The translations under genes were made by a program, and so were the position numbers. Shown piece by piece: positions 7,937-36,009 of a stretch of DNA of 64,000 bases. Position 1 is the first letter of the stretch. Each line of letters begins with the position of its first letter. The DNA lies in IMG/VR virus record IMGVR_UViG_3300050821_013777, positions 1 through 64,000 of that record; one strand, given 5' to 3'. Below the pieces are notes generated by a model, which saw only the letters and a list, made by a program, of their open reading frames with translations, had not been told where the DNA came from and made no database searches. This stretch comes from a virus.

Positions 7937-8418
7937 ACCTCACCTCGCAGCAGCAGCTCGGCGGTGAGGCTGTCCTGCAGCTCAGAGTCGAGCGCGACCT
8001 CCTGTAGCCGTCCCAGCCTTCGCGCCTCGACTGCCCACGCCGGCACGAACGCGCCGAGCGCGGACTTGTCGACAGAAACACCCGCTGCGAGCATCTCGTC
8101 GAGCGCTATTGACCTGTCGATATCTTCAGGATGGGCGAAGTGCGTGTAGTGCATGCGGTGAAGCTCCATCAGCCTCCTCATGAACGGCTCGGCAGCGAGC
8201 ATGACAGGCACACCCGTGGCCTTGAGACCCCCTTTCTCGATCAGTGTTTCCGCTGCCCTGATGGCAGGGAGGGCGAACGAGAGCTGGTGCTTGATGGACT
8301 GTATCCCAGACCCACCGTGCTCGCGGCTGATGTACGCCATCGCGAACAGCGCGAGGCGCACGTGCCCCCGGTCGAGGGCCTTGTTGATCAGTTCGGGAGC
8401 GCGCGCCGACCGGTTCAC
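7933..8418 (-). CDS. unknown helical protein beside the VWA gene
   Basis: 161 residues, almost entirely helical (LINKALDRGHVRLALFAMAY, RAAETLIEKGGL). The GTG start overlaps the stop of the VWA gene (GTGA), so it is probably the third partner of the MoxR-VWA module. No family recognised. Confidence 0.55.
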   Translation of the reverse strand: MNRSARAPELINKALDRGHVRLALFAMAYISREHGGSGIQSIKHQLSFALPAIRAAETLIEKGGLKATGVPVMLAAEPFMRRLMELHRMHYTHFAHPEDIDRSIALDEMLAAGVSVDKSALGAFVPAWAVEARRLGRLQEVALDSELQDSLTAELLLRGEV

Positions 8419-9773
8419 GCGTCGTCCTCGACCCAGACCACGTCGCCGTAAGGCATCGTGAAGTTCTTGTTGCCTCCAACAATCGCCCAGATGGTATGAA
8501 ACCCCGGCTCGTCCGGCTGGTCGATGTAGCCGTCCGTCACGACCACGCACACCGTGATCTTGTTCTTCAGCTGCGAGACCGCTTCGAGTGCGGGCGCCAT
8601 GGCCGTGCCGCCGCCACCCTTCATCATCGAGCGCGCCTGCCTGATGTTGGCGATCGGCTTGATGCCATGTACCTCGGCGTCGCAGATGCACAGCGTGATG
8701 TTCGAGCCCACGGCCTTGAGCACACCTTGTACCTCTGACAACGCCTCCGCGAGCTGCTCGTCGCCCATGCTGCCGCTCGTATCGATGACACACGCGACCT
8801 CGGGCTGTGGCGCGTGCAGCGCGGGGACGACCGGGCGGCCCACGCCGAAGCCGACACCGGCCTGGCGCCGCGACACCTTCCCCCACGTGAGATCGGCCGA
8901 TCCACTCCGGTAGGCGACAGCGCCGCGGATGACCCGTGCGAGCTTCGTGCGCCACGGGATCTTCGCCGGCTTGAGCATCTCGTCGGCCCAGCGCTCCAGG
9001 CTCGACGGGACGGTTCCGCGCCTCTTCGAGGCATAGTCCTTCACTGCCTCGGCGGTCGCGCGCCGCATGCGCTCCAGCTCGGCCTCAGAGCGCCCCTCGC
9101 CAGGCTTCCCGGTCGGGTCGGGCTCGCCAGGGATCGGGTGCTGCGCACAGCCGCCGCAGTGGCCCCCGGTGACGCCCGCCTGGGGCTGGCCCTTGCCCGG
9201 CGCGCCCTGCCCCTGCCCCGAGCCTTGCCCGCCCTGCGGCTGCTTCGGCTGCTTCTTCTCCCACTCTTCGAGGAGCTTGTAGTACACCTCAGCAGTCAGC
9301 CCCTCGGGGAACTTGAACTGCTCGGGGAAGAGTCCGTCCTTCGGCAGCGCGGCGAACTTGCGCACGTCGGTGTTGATCGCGAGATCCCCTGCCCAGTTCC
9401 ACCGCCGCGCCTTCGAGAACATCTCGTTCGACGGCTCGGGCTTGATGCCGAGAGCTGTGGCGCGGTCGGCGTGCTTGAGCGCGAGGTGCATTGCCTCATG
9501 CACAAGCACGCCGGCCAGCTCGTCGCTCGTGATGCTCGCGACGAACTTCGGGCTCCACCACAAGACCCCGTCCCGGCTGACAGCGAGTGTGGCGGGCATG
9601 CCGAGCGCCTCCATGATCACGTGCTGCTCGGGCGAGATCTCGCGGCGGATGAGCCCGCGCAGGAGCACCCCGAAGTACGGAGCGATCCCGATCGAGTTGC
9701 CGTCCTTCCGCTTGCCGGGATCGACAACGCGAATCATGCCTGCTGCCAACTTGTCTCGGGGACTGAGTGCCAT
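8415..9773 (-). CDS. metallopeptidase-like plus VWA-domain protein
   Basis: 452 residues. The N-terminal domain carries HEAMH (92-96), a zincin-type HExxH motif. A long Gly/Gln/Pro/Lys-rich linker with two Cys pairs follows. The C-terminal domain is a VWA fold with MIDAS elements DTSGSMG, GGGGTAM and VVTDGYID. This is the DUF2201-type layout that is normally encoded next to a MoxR ATPase, as here. Such pairs are thought to act as chaperones or metal-dependent remodelling systems. Whether the HExxH site is catalytic is not known. Confidence 0.75.
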   Translation of the reverse strand: MALSPRDKLAAGMIRVVDPGKRKDGNSIGIAPYFGVLLRGLIRREISPEQHVIMEALGMPATLAVSRDGVLWWSPKFVASITSDELAGVLVHEAMHLALKHADRATALGIKPEPSNEMFSKARRWNWAGDLAINTDVRKFAALPKDGLFPEQFKFPEGLTAEVYYKLLEEWEKKQPKQPQGGQGSGQGQGAPGKGQPQAGVTGGHCGGCAQHPIPGEPDPTGKPGEGRSEAELERMRRATAEAVKDYASKRRGTVPSSLERWADEMLKPAKIPWRTKLARVIRGAVAYRSGSADLTWGKVSRRQAGVGFGVGRPVVPALHAPQPEVACVIDTSGSMGDEQLAEALSEVQGVLKAVGSNITLCICDAEVHGIKPIANIRQARSMMKGGGGTAMAPALEAVSQLKNKITVCVVVTDGYIDQPDEPGFHTIWAIVGGNKNFTMPYGDVVWVEDDA

Positions 9774-9808
9774 GGTGGTTGCTCCTTAGTGCAATCGTCG
9801 CGCCGGAT

Positions 9809-10972
9809 CTAGAACGTCTCGTTGAGGAGCGGCAGCATCCGGGAGAGCGCCGGCTTGCCGCTCGTGGCGAACTCCTTGGCCCCGATGACGGGCTCCAGCA
9901 CCCGCGCGATGCAGAGGGCGCGCGCCGCAGGGACAGCGATGTCCGCGGTGGTCTTGCTGACCTGGTCGATGAGGCGCCAGCAGTTGGCAGCGCGGGGCCC
10001 GCGGTTGGCGGCCTTCTCGGGGATGACGAGCGACGCGCACGCACTCAAAACCGCGAGCGAGCGATCCGGGCGGCGTTCGTCGTGCGTGAACTTCACCTTG
10101 CCGTCGAGCAGCTCCGCGGGATCGGGCAGGTCGACGTTGTTCTGCCAGACGCGGAACTCGGCCACCCAGCTCTGCCCCACGAAGCCGCCGATCAGCTCAT
10201 CGGTGTCGATCTCGTTGAGGCCGTGCACACGAGCCGACGTGAGCGCAGTGGCGGCATACTCGACCGAGCGCCGCGAGGGCCATGCCATCGACGCCTGCGC
10301 GCTGGCCTTCTCGGGACGCTTGTGGAGCAGCTCGGGGCGGCGGAAGATGAAGCCGCCGATGAGGCCGCGGGAGTGCGCCTCCGCGGCGGGCCACGCTGCC
10401 ATCACGCGAGCCTCCTCGGCTTCGGGATTGGGCGCGCTGGTGGACGTCGTGTCGGAGCCGAAGCCGCCAAGCAGGCCCTCGACCCAGGACGACGGGTCGA
10501 GCCCTTCGAAGTTGTAGTGCCCGAAGCGGTTGGCGAGCGCCGGAGGGAGGTCCCAGCCACCGGCCGCGTCTCCCGTGCTGTTGGCGGCGCCAATGACCCG
10601 AACGCGCTTGTTGAAGACGAACGAGCCGAGCGTGCGGAGCTGGACGAGGCCGAGCAGCGCGGCCTGCAGGGCGGGCGGGGCCGTGTTGATCTCGTCCACG
10701 AAGAGGATCCCGCCGTTCTCCAGCTGGACTGCCCAATCGGGCGGAGGGTACCGCAGGAAACCGTCAGCGTGCGGTACGGGCACAACTCCGAACTGACCCT
10801 CGCCGCGCTCGCCTGGTGAGATGCGATAGGCGAAGAGGCCAGACGACTTCGACACCGCGCGGACGTTGGACGTCTTGCCGGTGCCGGGCTCTCCATGAAG
10901 GAGACCGGGCAGGCCCCAGTGCCCTTCAGGACTCGGGCAGAAGAAGAGAGCGTGCAAGATTTTCTGGTTCAT
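9809..10972 (-). CDS. MoxR-type AAA+ ATPase
   Basis: 387 residues. Walker A GEPGTGKT (27-34) and Walker B ILFVDEIN (89-95), with the VQLENGGILFVDE context typical of MoxR/CbbQ ATPases. First gene of the operon, before the VWA protein. ATG at 10972 chosen for the AGGAGA Shine-Dalgarno ten bases upstream; an in-frame ATG at 11017 overlaps the promoter. Likely remodels a phage or host complex together with the VWA partner. Confidence 0.8.
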   Translation of the reverse strand: MNQKILHALFFCPSPEGHWGLPGLLHGEPGTGKTSNVRAVSKSSGLFAYRISPGERGEGQFGVVPVPHADGFLRYPPPDWAVQLENGGILFVDEINTAPPALQAALLGLVQLRTLGSFVFNKRVRVIGAANSTGDAAGGWDLPPALANRFGHYNFEGLDPSSWVEGLLGGFGSDTTSTSAPNPEAEEARVMAAWPAAEAHSRGLIGGFIFRRPELLHKRPEKASAQASMAWPSRRSVEYAATALTSARVHGLNEIDTDELIGGFVGQSWVAEFRVWQNNVDLPDPAELLDGKVKFTHDERRPDRSLAVLSACASLVIPEKAANRGPRAANCWRLIDQVSKTTADIAVPAARALCIARVLEPVIGAKEFATSGKPALSRMLPLLNETF

Positions 10973-11012
10973 TGGTCGGGTCTCCTTGGGCAGGTTTCGG
11001 TGACGAGCCAGG

Positions 11013-11021
11013 AACATAGCA
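11013..11021 (-). promoter_or_regulatory. extended -10 promoter of the MoxR operon
   Basis: The minus strand reads TGCTATGTT followed by CCTGGC, the same extended -10 block as at 3560 and 11206. No good -35 is visible at 16-18 bp, so it may need an activator or rely on the TGn extension. Confidence 0.5.
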
Positions 11022-26275: not shown

Positions 26276-26676
26276 CTTTTCAAGAGGAGGAGCAGGAACA
26301 GAAACCCAACGCCGACTCCGGCGTAGACAAGCATGTGACTGTTCTCGACAGGCAGCTGCGCGCCAGGAGCTTCACTGTCGTCACCAGGCGGCGGTGTGTT
26401 GTCCGGCACCAGGATGGCACCCGGCGGCGGGGCTTGCCCCGGCTGCACCATGATTACCCGGCCCTGGTCCATGAAGCGACGGGCCTTACGAATCTGGCGC
26501 TGCACTTGATGCGTGTACTGCATCACCTGCGAGGTAGCATCGGGGGCGTACGCCTGCGCTCCGGCAGCGACGAGTGCCTGCGCGCGCGGGTCGCTGGCGA
26601 CAGCGACCGCGTCGTGTGCGACGGTCCTGAACGCGTTCGTGATCGAGAAGCCCAGAGGCGATGCAGTAGTGATCAC
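26272..26676 (-). CDS. membrane-anchored virion protein candidate, PLGFS family
   Basis: 134 residues. Starts V-ITTASPLGFSITNAF and ends with one helix (MLVYAGVGVGFLFLLLLL) plus KR. Paralog of 24962-25450 by N-terminus and layout. GTG at 26676 chosen because the TACAGT -10 lies 7 bases upstream; a longer frame would place the promoter inside the gene. Confidence 0.6.
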   Translation of the reverse strand: MITTASPLGFSITNAFRTVAHDAVAVASDPRAQALVAAGAQAYAPDATSQVMQYTHQVQRQIRKARRFMDQGRVIMVQPGQAPPPGAILVPDNTPPPGDDSEAPGAQLPVENSHMLVYAGVGVGFLFLLLLLKR

Positions 26677-26683
26677 GAGAGAT

Positions 26684-26713
26684 ACTGTACGGGGCACGGG
26701 CCGGGGGCGTCAA
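26684..26713 (-). promoter_or_regulatory. leftward leaderless promoter, structural operon
   Basis: Minus strand: TTGACG at 26708-26713, 18 bp, TACAGT at 26684-26689, then 7 bases to GTG at 26676. Divergent from the promoter at 26735. Confidence 0.65.
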
Positions 26714-26734
26714 ATTGGCTGGCGGACCGGCGAT

Positions 26735-26764
26735 TTGCAGGCGAGGGGCACAGACAGGTATCCT
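26735..26764 (+). promoter_or_regulatory. rightward leaderless promoter, structural operon
   Basis: TTGCAG, 18 bp, TATCCT, then 9 bases to the ATG at 26774. The two divergent -35 elements are 21 bp apart, so the operons may be co-regulated. Confidence 0.6.
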
Positions 26765-26773
26765 GGTGAGAAG

Positions 26774-27778
26774 ATGCGATTCGGCGCTGTCGCTCCGCTG
26801 CTACGAGCACACCAAGTGACCACGCTCGCGGATCGTGTGGTGCTGCTGCGAAAGCTGGTCTGGTTCGGCGCGACGGCGTTCGATCCGCACGAGCCCCCTG
26901 TTGGGAGCTTGCAGGACCCGAACATGCGCCAGATCGGCTTGGAGATCACGCAGCCGTGCCGCGGACGCGACGACATGTGCGAGCTGCATTCGATCTACTG
27001 GTTCACCAAGAACAACACGCGCTACACCGGCGACATCACCTTCAAGGACACGTTCCAGAGCGCGTGGCGGACGCTGCAGTACGGCGGCGGGGACTGTCTG
27101 CCGCTATCGACGCTAGTCCTGTGCTTGAACAGGAAGCGCGCAGAAGGCACGTTCGTGCCGCTGAGTGAGATCGAAGAAGGTGATCTCATCATGGCCGATG
27201 GCGACTGGACGCGTGTGGAGAAGAGCTGGTTCACGGGACGGAAGCCGATACTCGCGTTCGAGCTGAGCAACGCAACAGTGCTGCGATGCTCGCCCGAGCA
27301 CAGGCTGCTCACGCTTGATGGTCACGAACGGCGCGCGGCGCATGTCGAGGTCGGCGAGCATCTGCTCACGCCGCGACGCGAGATTTCGCTCGGGTATGGC
27401 AGCATCATCCCGGTGTCGCCTGGTGGTGCACGCGTCGTCGCGATCCGCCGTGAGCCAGGCGCGCAGCTGTGCATGGACATCACCACCGAAGCCGGGCATT
27501 TCTGGCTACCGGAGTCAGACACGCTCGTCCACAACTGTGATGACCATGCTGTCCAAAACGCCGTGCTCGCAATGGTGAACGGGTTCGAGACGCGCTTTCG
27601 CATTACGAGCAACACCGGGTCGAGCTGGGACCACATCTACCTGCAGGCTGGCGTCCCGAAGACACAGCCGCGCCGTTGGGTCACGCTCGACACGACGCTG
27701 CCCGGCCGCGACCGATTTGACGTGCAGCCCCCATTCGCGAAGAAAGAAGACTTCCCCGTGACGGAGCCCCGGCGATGA
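26774..27778 (+). CDS. transglutaminase-like protein interrupted by a mini-intein
   Basis: 334 residues before splicing. Extein halves join as GGGD|CDDHA, the GDCDD motif of transglutaminase-like cysteine peptidases. WDHIYLQA and WVTLDTTLP supply the expected His and Asp. The intein (27095-27535) sits exactly before the catalytic Cys. The spliced protein is about 187 residues. Located in the structural operon, so a virion-associated peptidase, cross-linking or cell-wall role is possible. Confidence 0.75.
   Translation: MRFGAVAPLLRAHQVTTLADRVVLLRKLVWFGATAFDPHEPPVGSLQDPNMRQIGLEITQPCRGRDDMCELHSIYWFTKNNTRYTGDITFKDTFQSAWRTLQYGGGDCLPLSTLVLCLNRKRAEGTFVPLSEIEEGDLIMADGDWTRVEKSWFTGRKPILAFELSNATVLRCSPEHRLLTLDGHERRAAHVEVGEHLLTPRREISLGYGSIIPVSPGGARVVAIRREPGAQLCMDITTEAGHFWLPESDTLVHNCDDHAVQNAVLAMVNGFETRFRITSNTGSSWDHIYLQAGVPKTQPRRWVTLDTTLPGRDRFDVQPPFAKKEDFPVTEPRR
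27095..27535 (+). mobile_element. 147-residue mini-intein
   Basis: Starts with Cys (CLPLSTLVLC, block A). Block B is LRCSPEHRLLTLDG with the conserved His. Block F is MDITTEAGHFWL. It ends VHN before Cys+1. No homing-endonuclease domain fits in 147 residues. The frame is intact through both junctions and all splicing residues (Cys1, block-B His, terminal Asn, Cys+1) are present. Confidence 0.85.
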
Positions 27779-33528: not shown

Positions 33529-34314
33529 ATGGCAAATACCGGCACACTGACTGTGCGAGTTCGGGGGGTTCCGTTCCCCATCGAGTTCGCGGACTGGACC
33601 CACGACCGCCTCTACGCCACCGTCGAGTTCGAAGGAACCGACAGCCAGGTGATCCAGGCGTTCATCGGCGCGCAGGGCGCCACGATCCCGGGCGGCGCGC
33701 GCACGCTGACCTCGGTGGACACCAACATCCCGCGCTCGGGTGACACCGGGTTGCAGGAGGGTTGGGAGATGCTGATCTACAGCATCCAGATCCAGATCGA
33801 CCGCGAGATGGCGCGCAATGCGTCCCAGCAGTTCTTCCAGCTGCAGGACCAGACCAACGTGGGCGGCGCGACGCAGTTCAGCCGCAACGTCCACCTCGGG
33901 GGCTACGACCCCAGCAACACCGCGGGCGGCGTGCTCTTCGACTTCCTCCGGAAGACCTACCACAAGTTCCAGGTCAACCAGAAGGTCCAGTCGGAGGGCC
34001 CGGTGTCCAAGTACCCGCAGGGGTCGGGCATCTCGGTCTTCGGCACCACGACGAACCTGGAGAACGCGAACAACGGCTTGCCGTCGCCGCGTGACCAGTC
34101 GGCGTTCGTGCTGCCGATCTGGCTCCGCCCGAACATCGCGTACGTGGCGCTCCTCGCGCCACAGGCGACGCTCGGCATCGGCGGCGCCTCGGTCGCGTCG
34201 GGCCCGCCGTTCCCGACGGTCGAGGGCTACTTCGACTGGTCGTCGATCCCGGCGACCAACATCGGGTTCGACGTGAAGGAGACCTTGGAGGGTCAGGAAG
34301 GCCCCCTCAACTAG
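33529..34314 (+). CDS. major capsid protein candidate
   Basis: 261 residues. Beta-rich throughout (GTLTVRVRGVPFPIEF, YATVEFEGTDSQVIQAF, SQQFFQLQDQTNVGGA). No membrane helix, and a strong Shine-Dalgarno after a leader hairpin. Flanked by membrane virion candidates and followed by a group I intron and a strong terminator, as expected for a highly expressed gene. Size suits the larger of two single jelly-roll capsid proteins (P23-77 VP17-like). No sequence match recognised. Confidence 0.5.
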   Translation: MANTGTLTVRVRGVPFPIEFADWTHDRLYATVEFEGTDSQVIQAFIGAQGATIPGGARTLTSVDTNIPRSGDTGLQEGWEMLIYSIQIQIDREMARNASQQFFQLQDQTNVGGATQFSRNVHLGGYDPSNTAGGVLFDFLRKTYHKFQVNQKVQSEGPVSKYPQGSGISVFGTTTNLENANNGLPSPRDQSAFVLPIWLRPNIAYVALLAPQATLGIGGASVASGPPFPTVEGYFDWSSIPATNIGFDVKETLEGQEGPLN

Positions 34315-34632
34315 CGATAGTTGAGTGAAGAACTCGGTGAATTGCTGGAAACTCCTTAAGCCATGAACACCACAACGCAGCCGAAAACGGCAATCGTGAC
34401 GGTTCGAAAAGTTCACGGATTGGACAATCAGCAGCCAAGCCTCACTCGCGTGGGGAAGGTTCAGAGACTAGGGGGCAACCCCGTAGGGTCCAAGCGGATC
34501 CGAAGTGCCGAGCACCTGTTCGCAGGTGGTGATGTAGTCCGACCTGAATCGAAAGATTCAGAGGTGTGCTGGAAGCGAGCACACCGCAACGTGGCCAGCT
34601 TCTGCGCCGCCCCGTCGTCTGATCGAGAGCTG
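34309..34632 (+). ncRNA. group I intron (subgroup IA)
   Basis: About 324 bases, ORF-less. P3 CTCGGT (34333-34338) with GCCGAG (34507-34512). Conserved GTTCAGAGACTA (34459-34470) and P7 GACTA/TAGTC (34535-34539). P7.1 GGGG/CCCC and P7.2 GGGTCC-AAGC-GGATCC, both typical of IA. P8 CACCTG-TTCG-CAGGTG. P9 CTGAATC-GAAA-GATTCAG. P9.1 GGTGTGCT/AGCACACC. AACTAG occurs at both ends (34309 and 34633), so splicing after CTC would regenerate the stop codon. Exact splice sites are inferred. Confidence 0.85.
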
Positions 34633-34657
34633 AACTAGGCTCGATCCGAACGACAAG

Positions 34658-34693
34658 AAAACCCCCGACGCTCGAAAGAGTGTCGGGGGTTTT
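34658..34693. terminator. strong bidirectional terminator
   Basis: AAAACCCCCGACGCTC, loop GAAA, GAGTGTCGGGGGTTTT: a 16-bp stem with A/T tracts on both sides. Serves the capsid operon from the left and the convergent endonuclease gene from the right. Confidence 0.85.
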
Positions 34694-34698
34694 CTCTT

Positions 34699-36009
34699 TT
34701 ACAGCCCATTCATCCCAGGTGGATACGGGACGCCTTTTTTACCGAACAGTTCGGGGTGCTCTTCTTGTAGATGTCGTGCGAGTTGTACGGCGTGCTTGTA
34801 GCGTCTCCACCCAGCGACGATCGCGACGCCTTGCTCAGTCAGCTGGCCGTTCTTCAGCAGACCCCAGCGGCCGAACGCACCTACTGGCGCGCGTACTCCT
34901 CGATCTACTTCGTCAAGACGTTCAGCACGCTCGCCGAACGCGAGAAGTAGTCGAACGCGGTTCATGGAGTGGACGAAGGCCCTTGCGTCGAGGAGCTGCA
35001 GCATCTCTCCGGCGCGCAGTGTGATGTGCGTGCCTTCATCAGTGTTTCGATGGTAGCTGCCTGCCTCGAAGGTCCAGCCGAACGCCTCAGCGAGCGCACG
35101 CTTGACAACTCGGTGCTCAGCGGCGTGCCCTGCGAGACGCAAGTCCTTGCTATTCTTTCCGTCTACGAACGCCCCGTCCCCGTCTAGCCATCCGAGCGCG
35201 AATTCTCGTGCAGCGTCGGGTGAAGGGAACGGCGCAGCGAAGATCTGCGCAAGCGCGACGCGCGCTATCCGCAGCAGCGGGCTCGACTTCCGCACGTGAA
35301 TGATGCCAGCATTTTCGCCTCGTCCAGGTGCGCGAGCGCGCTCGGCTACAATCTCGACGCCAAGAGCCTCATACTTCTGGCGCGCGTGCACAGCAGGTTC
35401 GTCCCAGGCGTGCAGCACCTCCAGCGAAAGTCGTGATCGGGGCAGCCCCCACTGGGCGAGCAAATCAATCGCGTGAGCCAGCAGTAGTGGGTTCGTGTTC
35501 GCAAAGGTGAAGTCGACGGCCTCTTGCCCCTTCGTTCCCTCAGCCTGCCAGAGACCTAGCACACGATAGACGGCCAGTGGTGGCGGAACACGGGTCAGCT
35601 CGAACGGCGGCTCGTGCTGGTTCCAGATCGACAGGGCCCCCCCTGCACCATCGACGGGAAAGTAGCTCTCGTGCGTGACATGTGGCAGCCAGTCGAAAGC
35701 ACTGTCTGCTCGGGGCCGCGCAGCGTACGGCTCGGCGCTCTCCGCCTCGACGTGCAGTACGGTGCCGCGCTCGATCCCCGGCGCGCAGTATCGCGGCAGC
35801 GTGACATCGACGGACGCCCGCGACGGCGGCCGGCGGGCGTACGCGAAGAATGGCGTGCTGCTGTTCACACGCAGACGCAGCCACCCTGGCGCCTGAAACG
35901 TCCCATCGAGCGTCCTGTATTCAGCGGGTATTGTCATGCAAGGCGACGTCCCCGTACCAACATTCGCTTTCTTTCCCTGGAAATACGCGACGACGCTGAA
36001 CTTGACCAT
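34699..36009 (-). CDS. LAGLIDADG homing endonuclease
   Basis: 436 residues. Two LAGLIDADG helices: VLGLWQAEGT (about 150-159) and ALGWLDGDGAF (271-281), each with the acidic catalytic residue, plus intervening beta regions. The first 140 residues are extra and unrecognised. The gene lies next to, but outside and antisense to, the group I intron, so it may mobilise itself or the intron. A TAAACT -10 lies 9 bases before the ATG. Confidence 0.75.
   Translation of the reverse strand: MVKFSVVAYFQGKKANVGTGTSPCMTIPAEYRTLDGTFQAPGWLRLRVNSSTPFFAYARRPPSRASVDVTLPRYCAPGIERGTVLHVEAESAEPYAARPRADSAFDWLPHVTHESYFPVDGAGGALSIWNQHEPPFELTRVPPPLAVYRVLGLWQAEGTKGQEAVDFTFANTNPLLLAHAIDLLAQWGLPRSRLSLEVLHAWDEPAVHARQKYEALGVEIVAERARAPGRGENAGIIHVRKSSPLLRIARVALAQIFAAPFPSPDAAREFALGWLDGDGAFVDGKNSKDLRLAGHAAEHRVVKRALAEAFGWTFEAGSYHRNTDEGTHITLRAGEMLQLLDARAFVHSMNRVRLLLAFGERAERLDEVDRGVRAPVGAFGRWGLLKNGQLTEQGVAIVAGWRRYKHAVQLARHLQEEHPELFGKKGVPYPPGMNGL

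What the first reader, a model, noticed from the sequence alone, without database searches (positions are those of the whole stretch)
34309..34632. Group IA intron at the stop codon of the major capsid candidate
Conserved core segments and helices P3, P7, P7.1, P7.2, P8, P9 and P9.1 can be paired by eye. AACTAG is present at both ends. If the last intron base is G34632 and the 5-prime exon ends CTC at 34308, ligation restores AAC TAG, so spliced and unspliced mRNA encode the same protein. The insertion is thus nearly cost-free in a highly expressed gene. The 5-prime exon would end in C rather than the usual U, so the sites need testing.
Basis: partly seen in the sequence, partly recalled or inferred. 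Interest (0 to 1): 0.8.

Follow-up and report, generated by a model that had tools for sequence, protein, structure and literature searches.

The report
Self-splicing intron in a virion gene
A virus from environmental DNA carries a 305-base self-splicing group I intron, but it interrupts the gene eight codons before the true stop, so splicing is needed to make the normal protein end, and a likely homing endonuclease gene lies just downstream; this is a new example of a well-known kind of mobile element.

Summary
A real group I intron is present: Rfam RF00028, 83.4 bits against a cut-off of 50. Similarity to the host protein in the first five relatives stops at residue 255, codon GGT 34291-34293. 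All six intronless relatives run straight on to LL[KR]RPVV* or LVKRPVT*. In the window that tail, LLRRPVV*, is encoded at 34599-34622. Only the junction 34293/34599 restores it with U before the intron and G at its end; two one-base shifts are equivalent in protein. P1 puts U34293.G34301 at the cut and a 5-pair P10 is available. So the intron is 34294-34598 (305 nt, group IA-like). Unspliced mRNA would end QEGPLN*. The AACTAG 'repeat' is coincidence. A 436-aa opposite-strand ORF downstream (34699-36009) has two LAGLIDADG-like motifs; decayed relatives sit at the same place in two intronless genomes and none is detected in four others. This looks like a free-standing homing endonuclease beside an ORF-less intron (collaborative homing), not proved. 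Splicing was not tested, and that the gene encodes the major capsid protein is unproved.

The parts
33529..34293 (+). 5' exon of the host gene (codons 1-255, probable virion protein)
   Evidence: 67-88% identical best segments in five viral relatives whose similarity ends at residue 255; a sixth relative at 69%
34294..34598 (+). Group I intron, 305 nt, group IA-like
   Evidence: RF00028 83.4 bits; ends from intronless relatives and U/G rule
34287..34306 (+). P1, with U34293.G34301 wobble at the 5' splice site
   Evidence: RNAfold of 34284-34330; Rfam alignment
34307..34324 (+). P2 hairpin with GCGA loop; holds the in-frame UAG of the unspliced message
   Evidence: Rfam alignment and fold
34333..34512 (+). 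P3 (34333-34337 with 34508-34512), enclosing P4-P6 and, between P7 and P3 3' strands, P7.1 and P7.2
   Evidence: Rfam alignment; positions
34466..34539 (+). P7 (GACUA 34466-34470 with UAGUC 34535-34539), the guanosine-binding helix
   Evidence: Rfam alignment; positions
34471..34501 (+). P7.1 (34471-34482) and P7.2 (34486-34501) hairpins, group IA feature
   Evidence: minimum-energy fold; positions
34513..34584 (+). P8 (34513-34528), P9 (34544-34561), P9.1 (34564-34584)
   Evidence: minimum-energy fold; positions
34599..34622 (+). 3' exon coding end, LLRRPVV and stop TGA; its first five bases can pair with 34296-34300 as P10
34656..34700 (.). Strong hairpin with T-runs, probable terminator between the two convergent genes
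   Evidence: fold -34.3 kcal/mol; near-palindromic repeat
34699..36009 (-). 436-aa ORF, probable free-standing LAGLIDADG homing endonuclease
   Evidence: two LAGLIDADG-like motifs (LGLWQAEG, ALGWLDGDG), sub-threshold LAGLIDADG_3 match, decayed homologues at the same place in L003 and L005

Best explanation
A group IA-type self-splicing intron (34294-34598) interrupts a conserved, probably virion, gene between codons 255 and 256, seven codons plus the stop before its natural end. In the mRNA an outside guanosine held in P7 attacks after U34293 (the U.G pair of P1); the freed exon then attacks after G34598, lined up by P10, joining GGU to CUUCUG and restoring ...ETLEGLLRRPVV*. Shown here: the intron core, the intronless alleles and the exon joining they imply. 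Inferred: that it splices in the cell. The intron has no convincing ORF of its own; the 436-aa opposite-strand ORF just downstream is most likely a free-standing LAGLIDADG endonuclease that cuts the intronless site, so that intron and endonuclease gene spread together (collaborative homing). That last step is inference, probability about 0.45.
For: RF00028 83.4 bits, cut-off 50, only one such match in the 121.5 kb record and none in six relatives. Similarity of the host protein stops exactly at the 5' splice site and resumes as LLRRPVV* after it. Only one of the restoring junctions has U before and G at the end. P1 wobble at the cut and P10. For the endonuclease part: motifs and weak Pfam match, patchy and decayed relatives at the same site.
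Against: No RNA data. P9.0 could not be assigned with confidence. The ORF's Pfam match is under the cut-off, its structure model is poor, and its target is unknown. Two genomes hold relatives of the ORF without the intron, so the pairing of the two rests on one genome.
Confidence: 0.92

Rival explanations
1. One reading: the intron runs from 34309 to 34632, so splicing recreates AAC TAG and leaves the protein unchanged.
For: AACTAG at both places and a perfect hairpin next to the first.
Confidence: 0.02
2. The intron is a fossil that no longer splices, and the virus uses the QEGPLN end.
For: No RNA data; the unspliced frame gives an almost full-length protein.
Against: Core, splice-site pairs and the 3' exon codons are all intact; the tail is strongly conserved in relatives.
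Confidence: 0.05
3. The downstream ORF is unrelated to the intron: another kind of accessory gene, or an endonuclease with a different target.
For: Pfam match below cut-off, no PHROGs or NCBIfam match; relatives of the ORF occur without the intron; its target is unknown.
Against: Two LAGLIDADG-like motifs; same intergenic position next to the intron site in three genomes; a decay pattern typical of homing genes.
Confidence: 0.5

Closest known systems
Capsid-gene intron of mycobacteriophage LittleE (Cluster J; PMC3706429)
   Same: Intron in a phage capsid gene, U at the end of exon 1 and G at the end of the intron, found by comparison with intronless relatives, opposite-strand LAGLIDADG-like ORF.
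   Different: There splicing was shown and the ORF lies inside an 820-bp intron; here the intron is 305 nt and the ORF is outside it. Sequence relationship was not tested.
Collaborative homing pairs: cyanophage S-PM2 psbA intron with F-CphI, and T3/T7-like phages (reviewed in PMC3984707 and PMC10448857)
   Same: ORF-less intron with an endonuclease-like gene outside it, close to the insertion site.
   Different: The endonuclease here would be LAGLIDADG-like, is not shown to cut, and its target is unknown; F-CphI uses an Endo VII-type motif (PMC6083498, abstract).
Other viral group I introns with an extended P5 (L055, L058, L106, L112, L118)
   Same: 72-74% identical over about 140 nt, covering P3 to R.
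   Different: They lie in other viral contigs; the genes they interrupt were not worked out here.

Membership tests
Group I intron (RF00028) | Covariance-model score above the curated cut-off, whole core present | tested here: met
   83.4 bits against 50, model positions 1-253
Group I intron (RF00028) | U at the end of the 5' exon paired to G in P1, and G as the last intron base | tested here: met
   U34293.G34301 and G34598
Group I intron (RF00028) | Removal restores the sequence of intronless relatives | tested here: met
   Six relatives
Group I intron (RF00028) | Self-splicing with guanosine as cofactor | not testable with these tools
   Needs RNA work
Group IA subgroup | P7.1 and P7.2 between P7 and P3 | tested here: met
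   Both hairpins in the minimum-energy fold; IA1/IA2/IA3 not told apart
LAGLIDADG homing endonuclease (ORF 34699-36009) | Two LAGLIDADG motifs with acidic residues | tested here: inconclusive
   Motif-like LGLWQAEG and ALGWLDGDG by eye; LAGLIDADG_3 13.4 bits, cut-off 22.5
LAGLIDADG homing endonuclease (ORF 34699-36009) | LAGLIDADG fold | tested here: inconclusive
   Model pLDDT 43, fold searches uninformative; profile comparison no better than shuffles
Collaborative homing pair | Free-standing endonuclease gene near an ORF-less intron | tested here: inconclusive
   Position fits and the ORF occurs near intronless sites, but the ORF is not proved an endonuclease
Collaborative homing pair | The endonuclease cuts the intron insertion site | not testable with these tools
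   Needs a cleavage assay
Major capsid protein (host gene) | Sequence or fold match to a known capsid family | tested here: inconclusive
   No match in Pfam, PHROGs, NCBIfam or PDB sequences; model pLDDT 30

The most novel reading that the evidence does not exclude
Probability: 0.35. Interest if true: 0.45.

Novelty: new member of a known kind. Interest (0 to 1): 0.3.

Why it matters
It corrects the exon joining of a conserved virion-region gene that direct translation gets wrong (QEGPLN for LLRRPVV). It also gives a small natural series (empty site, endonuclease relic, intron with intact ORF) in which collaborative homing could be tested, if the ORF is the nuclease it seems to be. Group I introns in phage capsid genes are already known.

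Tried and rejected
The AACTAG repeat as a signal: coincidence. An ORF inside the intron (34363-34638, 91 aa): it runs through core helices, GC3 0.64, treated as chance. Searches for the host protein and the ORF in annotated phages and plasmids and in bacterial genome contigs: nothing. AlphaFold models of both proteins: too poor to use. Foldseek and VIA-align rows (FtsZ, RidA and others) are not informative and list no LAGLIDADG chain. HHalign of the ORF against five LAGLIDADG proteins gave scores no better than shuffled sequences. No covariation count was made on an intron alignment; the Rfam score was taken as enough. P9.0 was looked for and not assigned.

Full report
What was claimed and what is there. 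Rfam finds one RNA family in the whole window, the group I intron RF00028, at 34284-34561 on the + strand with 83.4 bits (cut-off 50, E 1e-19, whole model). The stretch folds better than all 100 shuffles (z -2.7) and shows P2, P7.1, P7.2, P8, P9 and P9.1. The intron is therefore real.

Where it begins and ends. The host protein (33529 onward) has relatives in IMG/VR viral contigs. In the first five, similarity stops at residue 255, a glycine coded by GGT 34291-34293. Six intronless relatives go straight on with LLKRPVV*, LLRRPVV* or LVKRPVT*. The window carries CTT CTG CGC CGC CCC GTC GTC TGA, that is LLRRPVV*, at 34599-34622. Trying all 5' exon ends from 34270 to 34334 with all 3' exon starts from 34561 to 34660, only three neighbouring pairs restore the tail, and only one, 34293/34599, has U before the intron and G as its last base. 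Folding 34284-34330 gives a P1 in which U34293 pairs with G34301 as a wobble pair, and the first five bases of the 3' exon can pair with 34296-34300 as P10. The intron is 34294-34598, 305 nt.

The UAG in it is an in-frame stop inside the intron. Without splicing the protein would end QEGPLN instead of the conserved tail, so spliced and unspliced mRNA do not encode the same protein. The second AACTAG lies after the true stop; an AACTAG also follows the stop in intronless L002, so the repeat is taken as chance.

The neighbour. Between the intron-holding gene and the next gene (36131 onward) lies a 436-aa ORF on the opposite strand (34699-36009), separated by a strong hairpin. It has two LAGLIDADG-like motifs. 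Its core scores 13.4 bits against LAGLIDADG_3, below the cut-off, and the second motif weakly matches double-motif LAGLIDADG proteins from other viral contigs. Homologues lie at the same place in two of the six intronless relatives. In L005 the copy is truncated and has lysine for the acidic residue of the first motif. In L003 the middle is missing and the frame is broken. In the other four the ORF is not detected. Empty site, decayed gene, and intact gene with intron is the pattern homing elements leave. With the ORF outside the intron, the nearest model is collaborative homing as reviewed in PMC3984707 and PMC10448857. No test of cutting was possible.

Comparison with the known. Introns in phage capsid genes are known, for example in mycobacteriophage LittleE, with splicing shown and an opposite-strand LAGLIDADG-like ORF inside the intron, and, cited there, in lactococcal phage Tuc2009 (PMC3706429). 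Other viral contigs hold introns 72-74% identical over about 140 nt, sharing the extended P5. The intron is a new member of a known kind.

Limits. The virus is a 121,543-base record, and these two proteins have no match in the annotated phage collection. No Terminase_6N or FtsK_SpoIIIE match was found in it or its six relatives, but other terminase families were not tried and the records may be fragments, so its type is open, and that the host gene encodes the major capsid protein is unproved. The search tools may leave out near-identical records, so other intron carriers may exist.

Noticed in passing
L135:793-2727 (-); own record G000 about 92-94 kb: A ThyX-like ORF (644 aa) appears to hold an in-frame intein with a LAGLIDADG_3-like domain (21.9 bits, just under the cut-off). 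The ThyX and intein reading is by eye.
   Followed up: partly
window 26513-27775 (+): ORF with weak matches to Transglut_core and to an intein splicing domain, both below their cut-offs.
   Followed up: no
L164:15100-16905 (-); own record about 116.6-118.4 kb: TnpB/OrfB-like IS605-family gene in the viral record.
   Followed up: no
G000 and the records of L002, L003, L004, L005, L006, L012: Seven related viral records of 89-122 kb in which Terminase_6N and FtsK_SpoIIIE were not found, with a conserved main virion-region gene that has no family match; possibly a poorly described virus group.
   Followed up: partly
window 8418-11017 (-): Neighbouring VWA/metallopeptidase-like (DUF2201) and AAA ATPase genes.
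   Followed up: no
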